This document shows, one piece after another, positions 227 to 9,025 of a stretch of 10,000 bases of DNA; the first letter of the stretch is position 1, and each line of letters starts with the position of its first letter. Source of the stretch: Candidatus Hydrogenedens sp. (GTDB taxonomy: Bacteria > Hydrogenedentota > Hydrogenedentia > Hydrogenedentales > Hydrogenedentaceae); NCBI GenBank assembly GCA_020216745.1, contig JAIWNQ010000239.1, positions 1 to 10,000 on the forward strand, given 5' to 3'. A model generated the notes under the pieces. It worked only from the letters and a program-made list of their open reading frames with translations. It had not been told where the DNA came from and ran no database searches. The position numbers and the translations under genes were made by a program.

Positions 227-280
227 AATACTAACACACACTTAATTTAATTATATGATATTACCTTAATTAATAAACGA

Positions 281-566
281 TAAAAAAGTTGAGGTGTCGG
301 TAGGGGGCAACCGACACCTCTATATTTTTACGGGCTCTGAGGGGAATCAGAGCTCAATGGGGTAGCAGAGTTGCGGAGAAGCGGAAGAGAGGATTCCCGG
401 CCGGGGTAAACCGGGACATCTGTTATTCCGGAGAGAGAGATGCACTGCAGTGGTAATGGGAGGACAACCACTGGCAGCATTATGTGCTTCGCTATGTGTT
501 GTTGATTCAATTGGACCTTGAATAGTGTAGTAGCATAGGGAACACAATCACAACTCTGCTACCAAC
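281..566 (-). ncRNA. candidate stand-alone structured RNA gene (~285 nt primary transcript)
   Basis: No convincing protein is encoded here, yet the segment 332-563 is visibly richer in G and C than its AT-rich surroundings. Positions 551-563 and 361-373 form a perfect 13-bp closing helix (GGTAGCAGAGTTG/CAACTCTGCTACC). Inside it are three hairpins. The first is 518-523/505-510 (ATTCAA/TTGAAT, 7-nt loop). The second is a long bulged stem, 467-480/440-454, with a 12-nt loop. The third is a GC hairpin, 411-416/395-400 (TCCCGG/CCGGGA). A fourth, external hairpin (347-355/332-340) precedes the intrinsic terminator at 291-320. A consensus-like promoter just upstream on the minus strand predicts a start near 566, right at the closing helix. 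Size, solitary promoter and long closing helix recall 6S RNA, but I do not recognise conserved 6S sequence. RNase P, tmRNA and SRP RNA motifs are absent. The family is unassigned; the strand call rests on promoter and terminator. Confidence 0.65.
291..330. terminator. bidirectional intrinsic terminator between the PDZ gene and a minus-strand RNA
   Basis: A perfect 11-bp GC-rich stem (291-301 with 310-320, GAGGTGTCGGT/ACCGACACCTC) closes an 8-nt loop. Reading plus, it is followed by TATATTTTTA (321-330). Reading minus, it is followed by AAC and then six Ts (287-282). It can therefore end the PDZ gene on the plus strand and the candidate RNA gene on the minus strand. The better T-tract is on the minus side. 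Confidence 0.85.
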
Positions 567-572
567 AACGTT

Positions 573-602
573 AATATACAATATTTATATATATAATGTC
601 AA
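573..602 (-). promoter_or_regulatory. sigma-70-type promoter for the minus-strand RNA
   Basis: Read on the minus strand, a perfect TTGACA (602-597) is followed after 18 nt by TATATT (578-573). The predicted start is a G near position 566, three bases before the 13-bp closing helix. The -35 box is the best in the window, which fits a constitutively and strongly expressed RNA. The spacer is AT-alternating. Confidence 0.65.
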
Positions 603-743: not shown

Positions 744-785
744 ACAAAAAAATAATTGTAATTTAAATAACAAATAAATATGGGG
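744..785 (-). terminator. weak possible terminator after the PPK2 gene
   Basis: Immediately downstream of the minus-strand stop is an imperfect AT-rich inverted repeat (770-773 with 756-759, plus a self-complementary ATTTAAAT centre). On the minus strand a run of seven Ts (752-746) follows. The stem is weak, so termination here is only a possibility; the next strong terminator-like structure is far away at 291-320. The remaining bases between about 603 and 743 are AT-rich, and I see no gene in them. Confidence 0.3.
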
Positions 786-5792: not shown

Positions 5793-6326
5793 ATGGCTGA
5801 ATTTAAAAGCACTACAATTATTGCTGTTCGAAGAAATGGAACCGTCGCTATGGCAGGCGATGGACAGGTAACCCTCGGTGATACAATCGTAAAAGGAACT
5901 GCAACAAAAATAAGAAGATTATATGGTGGTAAAGTTCTTGCAGGTTTTGCAGGTTCTGTTTCTGATGCCTTTGCATTATTTGAACGGTTTGAAGGAAAGT
6001 TAGAAGAATTCCATGGTAATTTGACGCGTTCCGCAGTTGAACTTGGAAAATTATGGAGAACCGATAAATATCTGCGACAGTTGAATGCTATGTTAATTGT
6101 GTGCAGTAAAGATGAAATCTTACTTGTGTCTGGAACAGGAGAAATTATAGAACCAGATGATGATATTTTGTCGATTGGTTCAGGTTCAGGTTTCGCATTG
6201 ACCGCAGCACGTGCTTTAATGAAGCATACAAATTTGTCAGCAGAACAAATTGCACATGAGGCTTTAAAACTTGCATCACAAGTTTGTATTTATACAAATG
6301 AACATATAACAGTAGAAATTTTGTAA
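5793..6326 (+). CDS. hslV: HslV, peptidase subunit of the HslUV (ClpQY) ATP-dependent protease
   Basis: A threonine peptidase that forms a double hexameric chamber and degrades proteins unfolded by the HslU ATPase in the cytoplasm. Its 177 residues match the family length. Diagnostic segments are [83 protein letters not shown] and [14 protein letters not shown]. The expected nucleophile, the first Thr of TTI, is residue 7, preceded by MAEFKS. This protein would therefore need a six-residue propeptide removed, unlike the enterobacterial form where Thr follows the initiator Met directly. It aligns with B. subtilis CodW (MSSFHATT), but residue 2 here is Ala, so an N-terminal Ser nucleophile is not available. 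The ribosome site AAGGA (5780-5784) lies inside the end of the upstream regulator gene, and the 1-bp gap suggests translational coupling. hslU is not downstream. Confidence 0.96.
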
Positions 6327-6452: not shown

Positions 6453-6490
6453 TTTGTTCATTATCAGAATTAATTAAAGTTGAATCGGCA

Positions 6491-6542
6491 TTAAGAGGAA
6501 AGTTCAATGACCAGTTGTCATTGAGTAAATCGTTCCTCTTAA
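6491..6542 (+). promoter_or_regulatory. two-tier hairpin in the 5' leader of the Lys/Ala-rich gene
   Basis: The outer arm is a perfect 10-bp stem, TTAAGAGGAA (6491-6500) with TTCCTCTTAA (6533-6542). An asymmetric internal loop (AGT versus GTAAATCG) follows, and then a perfect inner 8-bp stem, TCAATGAC (6504-6511) with GTCATTGA (6517-6524), closed by a 5-nt loop. No T-run follows, so it is not a terminator. It ends 11 nt before the true Shine-Dalgarno (6554-6560) and contains an AGAGGA SD-like sequence in its 5' arm. It may stabilise the mRNA, tune translation or bind a protein. Confidence 0.6.
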
Positions 6543-6567: not shown

Positions 6568-6666
6568 ATGGCCGCTGCAAAGAAACCCGCTGCAAAAAAA
6601 ACAGCTGCAAAGAAACCTGCAGCAAAGAAGCCTGCTGCAAAGAAACCAGCAGCGAAGAAAAAGTAG
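6568..6666 (+). CDS. 32-residue Lys/Ala/Pro repeat protein resembling an isolated histone H1 tail
   Basis: The ORF begins ATG GCC GCT GCA and ends TAG, with a strong TAAGGAG (6554-6560) 7 nt before the start. The product is MAA followed by five five-residue units AAKKP, AAKKT, AAKKP, AAKKP, AAKKP and a final AAKKK (13 Lys, 13 Ala, 4 Pro, 1 Thr). It is extremely basic and has no globular part. Such AAKKP repeats occur in the C-terminal tails of bacterial histone-H1-like proteins (for example Hc2/BpH1 types), which bind DNA through Lys. By inference this peptide could compact DNA or coat RNA. It has its own leader hairpin upstream and a strong terminator downstream, so it is probably a single-gene, well-expressed unit. 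Its lysine codons are about half AAG, whereas its neighbours mostly use AAA. At only 33 codons the ORF could be too short for standard gene callers. A chance repeat is unlikely given the SD, stop and terminator. Confidence 0.8.
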   Translation: MAAAKKPAAKKTAAKKPAAKKPAAKKPAAKKK

Positions 6667-6673
6667 TTAAATA

Positions 6674-6781: not shown

Positions 6782-9025
6782 ATGTTAGAAAAAAAATATA
6801 AAATCATTTTCAATAAAGTTCTTGATACCGCTATAAAAAATATACCTACAGGTGCTGTCGCATATATTGGACAATATGATGAGGTGCTATTTTTCCAAGC
6901 GTCTGGAAAATGTTCAGTTGTGCCGTATGAAGAACCTATGGATAAAGATGTTATTTTTGACCTTGCATCTCTCACAAAAGTTATTGCAACAACCACATCA
7001 ATTTTATTGTTATACCAGCAGGGGAAATTAAAATTAGATGAGAAACTTTATAAATATATTCCACTTCCCCTTTTTAAAGAAATTACAATTAGACATTTAT
7101 TAACACACAGCTCGGGTATTATCGGATATGAAACATGGTACAAAGAAATATTCTCTTTTGAAGACCTATTGATTAAGTTGTCAAAAACAAAATTATTCTT
7201 TAAACCTGGAACGAATCATCTCTATTCAGACTTCGGTTTTATATTATTAGGAAATATTATCGAGACAATATCAGGTAAAAAATTAGATCTATTTTGCAAA
7301 GATAATATTTTCTCCCCATTAAATATGAATAACACATTTTTTCACGTTCCCAAAGAATTTATTGATAAATGTGCTCCAACAGAAGAATGTCCATGGCGAA
7401 AAAAAATTATAAGAGGTGAAGTACATGATGAACATGCCTACGCATTAGGAGGTGTTGCTGGGCATGCTGGACTATTCTCTACTGCTGAAGATTTAGCCCG
7501 TTTTTCACGTGCTTTAATAAAACAACAACTACTTGAAAAAGAAGTAATAGAAGAGATGGCAACATGTAAAATAATACCTGATTATCCTTGGCAAGTATTA
7601 GGATGGAAAACAGACCCTTTTTGGGATAGCATCGAGGGGCAACTACCTTTTCGTTCTGCTCTTGGACACACAGGTTTTACAGGAACCTGCTTATGGTGGG
7701 ATAGAATATCAGGATACTATGCCATTTTGTTAAGTAATTCATGCCATCCGCGAAGAGAAAAAAGAGACAACCGAAAATTAAGAAAAACATTCTATAATTC
7801 CCTGGCAGTGATTGTCCATCCACAAAAGATGAATACCCACTACGGAATTGACACTCTATTGAGAAATGATTTTCAGCCTATTAAGAATGCCTCTGTCGGA
7901 TTATATACAAATACTTCCGCAACCAGTACAACAGGGAAGACAACCTTAGATATTTTTTATACATCTGAAAAAATAAAACTAAAATGCATTTTTACCGCTG
8001 AGCATGGATTAAATGTGTCAGAAGAATCTGGAAAATCAGAAAAACAGAAACAATGGATGAATATACCATTAATTGATATGTATTCGAAACATAAAACTAA
8101 TCAGTGGAGAGAAATATTAAAAACTCTTGATTGGATTGTAATTGATATTCAGGACATCGGTGTTCGCTATTACACGTATATATATTCGATGATTCAATTA
8201 TTAAAATTGTGTATGGAGTACAATAAGAAAGTTCTTATTCTTGATAGACCAAATCCACTCGGAGGAGAGATTATTGAAGGAATTTTTCCTGAGCCCTCAT
8301 TTGTAGATGAAGTATGTTGGGGAAATGTTCCTGTCCGACATGGCTTAACGATTGCAGAAACAGCATTATGGATACAAAATACAAATAAAGAATTCAATAA
8401 TTTAAATCTTGATGTTATAAAATTGGATGGCTGGTTTTATGATTTATTTTTCCATGAATTAGATTTGCAATGGATTCCTCCATCTCCGAATATTCAAAGT
8501 GTTGATTCCGCTCTATGTTATATCGGAACATGCTTATTTGAAGGCACAAATATAAGCGAAGGTCGAGGAACTGAAAAACCATTTCAAATAATAGGTGCAC
8601 CTTGGTGTAACCCAGAAAGAATAATTTCTAAAATACCAGATGATTTAAAACAAGGAATTGAAATAAAAAAATGTTCCTTTGTCCCAAAACCTATATTAGG
8701 AAAAACAACAAATCCAAAATACAATGGAGAACTTTGTGAAGGATTAGAATTTCAAATTATCAACCCTCATTTATGTAGACCATTTCGTTTGGTTGTGGAA
8801 ATCATTAAATTAATAAAAAGCAACCATCCCAACGAATTTCAATTTAATGCACATTTTGACAAACTTTGTGGAACCTCTAAACTTAGAATAGTAATCGAAA
8901 AAAATGAAGACCTAAATAATTTATGGTTACAAACAGAAAAAAATATTCAGACTTATATAACAACACATCCCCGATTATACACATCTCTCAAAGACGAAAC
9001 ACAAAAATTAATCGAATTGGCATAA
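6782..9025 (+). CDS. fused AmiE-like (beta-lactamase fold) amidase and NamZ-like exo-N-acetylmuramidase (DUF1343/GH171)
   Basis: A single 747-residue chain with two enzymes. Residues about 15-345 are a class-C beta-lactamase-fold serine hydrolase: S63-LTK66 nucleophile motif, Y148-SD in place of YxN, LGGVAGHAGLFSTAEDLARF (221-240), and H296-TG as the KTG equivalent. Residues about 352-747 are DUF1343: FTAEHG (404-409, proposed catalytic Glu407), VIDIQDIGVRYYTYIY (453-468), LDRPNPLGG (487-495), VPVRHGLTIAE (516-526), CLFEGTNISEGRGTEKPF (584-601) and GAPW (605-608). In B. subtilis the separate proteins AmiE (YbbE, N-acetylmuramyl-L-Ala amidase) and NamZ (YbbC, GH171 exo-beta-N-acetylmuramidase) act in turn on peptidoglycan fragments, so this fusion probably does both steps. 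No signal peptide is visible (MLEKKYKIIFNK), implying cytoplasmic recycling. The ATG has no Shine-Dalgarno, only an A-rich leader, and lies about 30 bp after a terminator; a TATAAA at 6757-6762 is the only promoter hint. Confidence 0.85.
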   Translation: MLEKKYKIIFNKVLDTAIKNIPTGAVAYIGQYDEVLFFQASGKCSVVPYEEPMDKDVIFDLASLTKVIATTTSILLLYQQGKLKLDEKLYKYIPLPLFKEITIRHLLTHSSGIIGYETWYKEIFSFEDLLIKLSKTKLFFKPGTNHLYSDFGFILLGNIIETISGKKLDLFCKDNIFSPLNMNNTFFHVPKEFIDKCAPTEECPWRKKIIRGEVHDEHAYALGGVAGHAGLFSTAEDLARFSRALIKQQLLEKEVIEEMATCKIIPDYPWQVLGWKTDPFWDSIEGQLPFRSALGHTGFTGTCLWWDRISGYYAILLSNSCHPRREKRDNRKLRKTFYNSLAVIVHPQKMNTHYGIDTLLRNDFQPIKNASVGLYTNTSATSTTGKTTLDIFYTSEKIKLKCIFTAEHGLNVSEESGKSEKQKQWMNIPLIDMYSKHKTNQWREILKTLDWIVIDIQDIGVRYYTYIYSMIQLLKLCMEYNKKVLILDRPNPLGGEIIEGIFPEPSFVDEVCWGNVPVRHGLTIAETALWIQNTNKEFNNLNLDVIKLDGWFYDLFFHELDLQWIPPSPNIQSVDSALCYIGTCLFEGTNISEGRGTEKPFQIIGAPWCNPERIISKIPDDLKQGIEIKKCSFVPKPILGKTTNPKYNGELCEGLEFQIINPHLCRPFRLVVEIIKLIKSNHPNEFQFNAHFDKLCGTSKLRIVIEKNEDLNNLWLQTEKNIQTYITTHPRLYTSLKDETQKLIELA

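What the first reader, a model, noticed from the sequence alone, without database searches (positions are those of the whole stretch)
281..602. Unassigned structured RNA gene with its own promoter and terminator on the minus strand
A complete transcription unit can be read: TTGACA-18-TATATT, a predicted start at 566, a perfect 13-bp closing helix (551-563/361-373), at least three internal hairpins, an external 9-bp hairpin, and an 11-bp GC-rich terminator with a T6 tract. The body is GC-richer than the AT-rich flanks and codes for nothing plausible. The size and closed topology could suit a divergent 6S RNA, but the conserved 6S bubble is not evident, so it could be a new RNA class. The sequence shows the helices and promoter; the family is unknown and the RNA's existence is inferred.
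Basis: partly seen in the sequence, partly recalled or inferred. Interest (0 to 1): 0.75.

Follow-up and report, generated by a model that had tools for sequence, protein, structure and literature searches.

The report
New structured RNA of Hydrogenedentota bacteria
The stretch is very probably the gene of a previously undescribed regulatory RNA, found across one little-known bacterial phylum, which in some species stands alone and in others is built into the message for a surface protein.

Summary
Minus strand 566-281 folds far better than shuffles (z -10.2), with promoter, closed body, external hairpin and terminator at the stated places. All four genomes held of the genus carry it between the same two genes, with indels that break any frame. 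Rfam has nothing for it above threshold; a 6S candidate lies elsewhere in the genome. The 3' module (hairpin B + hairpin C with GCCCCCU loop) recurs, with strong covariation, in 40 of 68 genomes of the order, in 1-7 tandem copies, and once, weakly, outside. It comes in two forms: stand-alone RNA (this window), or directly 3' of a cohesin-domain membrane-protein gene. Many loci of both forms share further nucleotide elements: AnARUUGAA(UC), kept inside the coding frame against codon usage (24 sites, 0.44 expected), and an upstream palindromic operator. This is a new RNA family. Its loops carry anti-Shine-Dalgarno-like runs (UCCUCCC, CCCCC); the most likely job is trans-acting repression of translation without Hfq, like AbcR or RNAIII in manner, not in descent. 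A decoy (sponge) role is the main rival. No transcript or target has been shown. A second phylum-wide C-rich RNA family was found in passing.

The parts
281..566 (-). whole predicted RNA (about 286 nt)
   Evidence: fold z -10.2; homologues in the three other genomes held of the genus
573..602 (-). sigma-70 type promoter TTGACA-18-TATATT
   Evidence: -35/-10 like pairs at the same place in the genus alignment (read by eye)
755..774 (-). palindromic operator TTTGTTATTTAAATTACAAT (consensus TTTGTAAT-N4-ATTACAAA), about 190 bp upstream of the start
   Evidence: 2 mismatches here, 0-3 in those relatives that have it
551..563 (-). 5' strand of the closing helix (partner 361-373)
   Evidence: kept in all 4 genomes, two pairs changed on both sides
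361..373 (-). 3' strand of the closing helix
504..514 (-). shared motif CCAATTGAATC (family consensus AnARTTGAATC)
444..478 (-). hairpin with loop TTGTCCTCCCATTA (anti-Shine-Dalgarno-like), invariant in the 4 genus genomes
396..415 (-). hairpin CCCGGTTTACCCCGGCCGGG with ACCCC loop, invariant in the 4 genus genomes
334..353 (-). hairpin B of the 3' module, loop TTCCCC at 341-346
   Evidence: 7 of 7 pairs with changes on both sides in A4
291..320 (-). hairpin C of the 3' module, GGT-TGCCCCCT-ACC top, also the terminator stem
   Evidence: T6 tract at 282-287
280..355 (-). complete 3' module (model R1 match, 76.7 bits, E 4.6e-14; the window copy is one of the 16 sequences of the model)

Best explanation
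The locus encodes a stand-alone regulatory RNA of a new, phylum-restricted family. It is transcribed leftwards from its own promoter, which lies downstream of a palindromic operator of CRP/FNR-like form (TGTAA-N6-TTACA; the type is my reading). The body folds into a closed multi-hairpin domain; several loops present C-rich runs, among them UCCUCCC, UACCCC, UUCCCC and GCCCCCU. I think it most likely acts in trans: the C-rich loops pair with G-rich ribosome-binding sites of mRNAs and lower their translation, without Hfq. The motif AnARUUGAAUC would be a second contact, a seed or a protein site. In other genera the same module and motif sit in the message of a cohesin-domain membrane protein, so there the transcript would be both mRNA and regulatory RNA. 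Shown: predicted structure, conservation, module spread, the two forms, the shared motif and operator. Inferred: transcription, pairing with ribosome-binding sites, the effect.
For: Fold and conservation: z -10.2, -10.9, -8.7 in window, L012, L010; genus alignment 77-98% identical with indels not in threes and 71 consensus pairs, 10 with double changes. Module: 40 of 68 order genomes; on 89 distinct copies 97.6% of cells pair against 86.0% in shuffles, 14 of 18 pairs with double changes, partners slid by 1-3 columns 36-45% (that alignment was fitted to the model and includes two matches that are a copy read backwards; the unfitted MAFFT alignment of 16 copies gave 97.2% against 89.3%, 10 of 18). 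Motif: 24 coding sites against 0.44 expected from codon usage (the class of sites was defined after the motif had been seen). Operator: all 11 sites with at most one mismatch in 432,246 bases of fetched loci lie at this locus. Anti-SD: AbcR1/2 of Sinorhizobium use CUCCUCCC and UUCCCCUC (PMC8844928, passages); the window has UCCUCCC and UUCCCCUC in its loops. RNAIII uses C-rich loops on mRNAs and also encodes a peptide (PMC2837412, passages). Hfq was found in 0 of 4 genus genomes.
Against: No transcript and no target is shown. A target search with TGGGAGGACA in four genomes gave no excess over the reversed pattern (26 matches, 4 of them the RNA itself; control 26) and only the rplA leader as a repeated place, in three genomes, which has its own reason to be conserved. 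G-poverty of the unpaired bases is what the composition predicts (0.065 against 0.070 in shuffles); C enrichment is mild (0.404 against 0.362, 3 of 200 shuffles as high). UUCCCCUC is not kept in the other three genus members. The closing helix has only two double changes.
Confidence: 0.42

Rival explanations
1. The RNA is a decoy (sponge): tandem C-rich modules and the AnARUUGAAUC motif bind and titrate an RNA-binding protein or a G-rich RNA, as CsrB does for CsrA with other motifs.
For: Variable number of tandem modules, 1-7; loop sequence conserved while stems covary; the motif also stands in other transcripts, e.g. between rpsG and fusA in two species (genes named by eye), as a regulon of a binding factor would; a second family with similar C-rich pieces.
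Against: No binding protein identified; the window has one module only; motif counts in whole genomes (39 against 5 for the reversed pattern in 6 genomes) include many inside or across unrelated reading frames.
Confidence: 0.27
2. A 3' untranslated stability, processing or termination element, which in this genus survived as a short non-coding transcript after loss of the cohesin gene.
For: 21 loci have the module within 85 nt of the stop of the cohesin-domain gene; hairpin C looks like a terminator here; partial relatives of the cohesin protein exist elsewhere in the genus genomes.
Against: The genus has a closed body with invariant loops, the upstream motif and the operator; in five loci read by eye (L013, L017, L184, L179, L177) a separate terminator-like hairpin follows the module array, so hairpin C is not the only terminator there.
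Confidence: 0.2
3. A dispersed DNA hairpin repeat (REP-like or recombination site) without RNA function.
For: Tandem hairpins of about 100 bp.
Against: In most of the 40 genomes one locus; at the 21 cohesin loci one strand relative to the gene; G-U pairs among the variants; no spread copies in the own genome.
Confidence: 0.05
4. Divergent 6S RNA.
For: Size and closed shape.
Against: No 6S match at the locus; 6S candidate on contig C108; branched body with no long open bubble.
Confidence: 0.01

Closest known systems
AbcR1/AbcR2 (alpha-r15, Rfam RF02345; suhB/mmgR RF00519 in the same clan)
   Same: Hairpin loop with UCCUCCC and a second run UUCCCCUC; stand-alone gene with terminator. Weak model match, E 4.8.
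   Different: 18.3 bits against a cut-off of 40; model of 112 positions against 286 nt; Hfq-dependent lineage (recalled), while no Hfq was found here; other phylum.
Staphylococcus RNAIII
   Same: Long multi-hairpin RNA with C-rich loops; mRNA and regulatory RNA in one (here perhaps in the cohesin-gene form).
   Different: No Rfam match to it; the protein is a cohesin-domain membrane protein, not a toxin peptide; the window form codes for nothing plausible; modules are tandem in relatives.
CsrB/RsmZ sponge RNAs
   Same: Repeated small hairpins in one RNA, copy number variable.
   Different: Loops are C-rich, not GGA (the GGA rule is recalled); no CsrA link tested.
6S RNA (RF00013)
   Same: Size, closing helix.
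   Different: No match, branched body, separate 6S candidate in the genome.

Membership tests
6S RNA (RF00013) | covariance model match over the gathering score | tested here: not met
   no match at the locus; best in genome on C108, 41.6 bits, cut-off 46.4
6S RNA (RF00013) | binding to RNA polymerase | not testable with these tools
   needs protein and RNA
alpha-r15 / AbcR (RF02345) | covariance model match over the gathering score | tested here: not met
   18.3 bits, cut-off 40, E 4.8
alpha-r15 / AbcR (RF02345) | two unpaired anti-Shine-Dalgarno motifs | tested here: met
   UCCUCCC and UUCCCC(UC) in loops of the fold (motifs); the second not kept in the genus
alpha-r15 / AbcR (RF02345) | Hfq in the host (recalled as a feature of the family) | tested here: not met
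   found in 0 of 4 genus genomes; the control search rings in 5 of 14 named genomes; the genomes are 86-96% complete
RNAIII-like dual-function RNA | C-rich hairpin loops | tested here: met
RNAIII-like dual-function RNA | encodes a protein as well | tested here: inconclusive
   not in the window form; yes at 21 loci with the cohesin-domain gene, where the RNA role is unproven
RNAIII-like dual-function RNA | pairs with ribosome-binding sites | not testable with these tools
   one loop searched, no convincing target
CsrB-type sponge | repeated GGA loops | tested here: not met
   loops are C-rich

The most novel reading that the evidence does not exclude
A phylum-wide class of transcripts built as operator + AnARUUGAAUC + tandem C-rich modules, in which one locus switches in evolution between a purely non-coding RNA and an mRNA whose coding sequence carries the RNA motif twice in frame, one copy after the signal peptide and one before the membrane anchor; the RNA, not the protein, would be the constant part.
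Probability: 0.35. Interest if true: 0.88.

Novelty: new variant of a known kind. Interest (0 to 1): 0.72.

Why it matters
Little seems to be known of regulatory RNA in this uncultured phylum (searches found no paper on it; my view otherwise). This is a family with defined boundaries, a covariance model, a two-form life (RNA alone or in an mRNA) and RNA signals hidden in a reading frame, so that hypotheses on Hfq-free RNA regulation in this phylum become testable from metatranscriptomes and reporters.

Tried and rejected
6S RNA: rejected. Protein-coding origin of the window RNA: the frames at 328-510 and 347-547 are broken by indels in relatives. Integron attC or other recombination site: the motif RTTGAA resembles GTTRRRY, but many sites have ATT and I saw no matching boxes in the module (by eye). 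Partner within the same transcript for the motif: TTCAAY found at no constant place. Viral origin: 13 viral contigs hold CGGTNGCCCCCTACCG, but only 16-20 positions match the model in each. Target search with the invariant loop: no excess; rplA leader only. Unpaired-G poverty as a signature: explained by composition. Clade-wise alignment of 5' bodies outside the genus: too divergent to give a common fold (9 loci). Papers: one search found 3 papers with both Hydrogenedent- and noncoding RNA, none on such an RNA by title; one search listed 15 of 214, none naming the phylum (listings only). The library holds open-licence PMC papers only.

Full report
The window is contig C278 of G000, a 3.1 Mb draft genome, 86% complete. 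It is Hydrogenedentota-like by its closest named relative: HslV of L042 'Candidatus Hydrogenedentota bacterium', 76% identical; two 'uncultured bacterium' contigs are closer, 91 and 89%. The collection gave 68 genomes of the order (G000-G067); the next relatives are given as 'same domain' only, so the order stands for the phylum here by my reading.

Observation. Minus strand 566-281 folds at -106.1 kcal/mol, z -10.2, 0 of 200 shuffles as good. The promoter is a near-consensus, though such hits are common in this AT-rich DNA. Rfam at E up to 5 gives nothing there but a chance-level alpha-r15 match, 18.3 bits against a cut-off of 40. In 8 relatives' loci Rfam at E up to 0.5 gives one sub-threshold match (skipping-rope, 24.5 bits, cut-off 36.7, L124). 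The genome has a 6S candidate elsewhere.

Genus. All four genomes held have the RNA; the other three are 88, 87 and 74% identical to the window by BLAST. It lies between the PPK2 gene and a convergent gene for a PDZ-like protein (the PDZ_6 match of L012 is under Pfam's cut-off, 23.4 against 27 bits; in the window that gene is the cut frame 2-226, without a Pfam match). L040 and L041 carry what appear to be the same sequences as L011 and L010 and were not counted twice. Indels break any frame; the loops TTGTCCTCCCATTA and TTTACCCC are identical in all four. The consensus has 71 pairs: 59 of one pair type, 10 with changes on both sides, 2 changed on one side; 5 are broken in at least one sequence.

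Module. A covariance model R1 of the two 3' hairpins (16 sequences) matches 40 of 68 order genomes at E <= 0.01. A larger run over 386 genomes, which as I read it include the same 68, gave 41 with E <= 0.001; the one outside (G260) is weak (32.6 bits, E 7.5e-4) and about what chance allows in some 300 genomes (strict filters, which lose weak matches). In the own genome the window is the only full match; the second is the same hairpin read backwards. Covariation is strong. Most of the 40 genomes have one locus, with 1-7 copies, mostly 84-115 nt apart with outliers (21, 77, 138-181); G055, G047, G027, G057 and G004 have matches on more than one contig, some of these contigs ending at the array.

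Two forms. At 21 loci (19, plus L182 and L218) the module follows, within 85 nt, the stop of a gene for a protein with a Cohesin domain (PF00963, 4 of 4 scanned) and a C-terminal membrane stretch (by eye). At 24 other loci no cohesin gene is seen next to it; five of these start within 60 nt of a contig end (L154, L180, L188, L189, L190). Relatives of the protein, some full length, occur without the module: 18 such loci were fetched, in 17 genomes without any R1 match and in G014, whose module is on another contig; L208 is cut at its 3' end.

Motif. Of the 24 non-cohesin loci 17 have NNA[AG]TTGA[AC]NN within 450 nt upstream of the module, 15 of them with TTGAA. L155 and L192 have TTGAC, the window's copy is CCAATTGAATC, L158 and L171 also deviate from AnARTTGAATC. 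Of the 7 without, 5 are the contig-end loci; L176 and L191 are real misses. Of the 21 cohesin genes with module, 14 carry AnARTTGAA shortly after the signal peptide, 13 of these again about 200 nt before the module; L153, cut by the contig start, shows only the second; 6 (G010 and five f11 genomes) have none. These sites are in frame in each gene; two looser TTGAC matches (L168, L169) are not. In the 19 genes of cluster c0, 24 of 33 [TRIK][VI]E sites have it, 0.44 expected from local codon usage (classes chosen after seeing the motif). Of the 18 module-less cohesin genes none has it inside the frame (L207 has a similar string just before its frame). So the signal is nucleotide-level and goes with the module, with six exceptions that have the module alone.

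Operator. TTTGTAAT-N4-ATTACAAA lies upstream of both forms. Of 45 loci looked at, 18 have it with at most 2 mismatches, 5 more with 3, and 22 show none at up to 4 mismatches, some because the contig ends. The six motif-less cohesin loci are among the 22. None of 18 module-less loci has it at up to 3 mismatches (the fetched upstream stretch is short in some). With the pattern TTTGTAATNTANATTACAAA at up to 2 mismatches it is the only site in the genome, at this locus, in G005, G013, G055, G047, G012 and G017, reversed-pattern control 0; G059 has 2, G018 0, and the AT-rich genus genomes G000-G003 7, 2, 2 and 1 against controls of 2, 0, 1 and 1. At the RNA itself G001, G002 and G003 have it with 1, 3 and 3 mismatches.

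Mechanism. The conserved loops resemble anti-Shine-Dalgarno motifs of AbcR1/2 (CUCCUCCC, UUCCCCUC; PMC8844928, passages) and C-rich loops of RNAIII (PMC2837412, passages) and IsrR (PMC9410917, passages). Hfq was found in 0 of 4 genus genomes. Against: no target, mild C enrichment only, G-poverty explained by composition. The tandem copies and a motif shared with other transcripts keep a decoy role open. I give the RNA gene itself about 0.93 and trans-acting anti-SD repression about 0.42.

Membership. It is not 6S and not alpha-r15: tested features fail. It works perhaps like AbcR or RNAIII, which is a statement on manner only.

A sister family. Pattern ATCTGCCTCACGTCACNCCTTNCC, up to 3 mismatches, hits 44 of 68 genomes, reversed control 0 in all 68; single 3-mismatch hits such as G047:C106, G055:C301, G035:C4 and G010:C40 look like chance. 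In 30 loci read, copies are single or tandem, 108-151 nt apart; six aligned copies lie in stems of variable sequence. In G000 it lies behind a FecR-like gene (by eye). In 6 of the 30 loci NNARTTGAATC stands 57-84 nt upstream. Rfam at E up to 0.5 in 6 loci gives 4 matches, all sub-threshold, in L321 and L308.

Noticed in passing
G000:C66:6925-6948 (L329) and loci in 43 other genomes: Second phylum-wide RNA family with core WTCTGCCTCACGTCACTCCTTCCC, tandem in many genomes, no Rfam match above threshold in 6 loci.
   Followed up: partly
L277, L278 (rpsG-fusA spacer), L304 (before a DEAD-box helicase start): The motif ACAGTTGAATC or ACAATTGAATC stands in leaders of translation-related genes; in the rpsG-fusA spacer in two species (gene names by eye).
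   Followed up: partly
G000:C151:8787-8806 and G000:C273:576-595 (L234, L235): The same operator (1 and 2 mismatches) lies about 200 bp upstream of two pilin-like DUF1559 genes.
   Followed up: partly
L259, L272, L273: rplA leaders (gene named by eye) in three genus genomes contain TGGGAGGACA, complementary to the invariant loop; probably the L1 autoregulation site (that role is recalled).
   Followed up: partly
G000:C108:3466-3670: 6S RNA candidate, 41.6 bits, just under the Rfam cut-off.
   Followed up: no
window 6569-6667: Short peptide of KKPAAKK repeats, preceded by a hairpin-forming leader near 6490-6540 (by eye).
   Followed up: no
window 6782-9025: Fusion of a beta-lactamase-fold domain with NamZ N- and C-terminal domains.
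   Followed up: no
window 5793-6326: Proteasome-fold protein, HslV by my reading, directly after a sigma-54 activator gene; no HslU seen among the scanned genes of the window.
   Followed up: no
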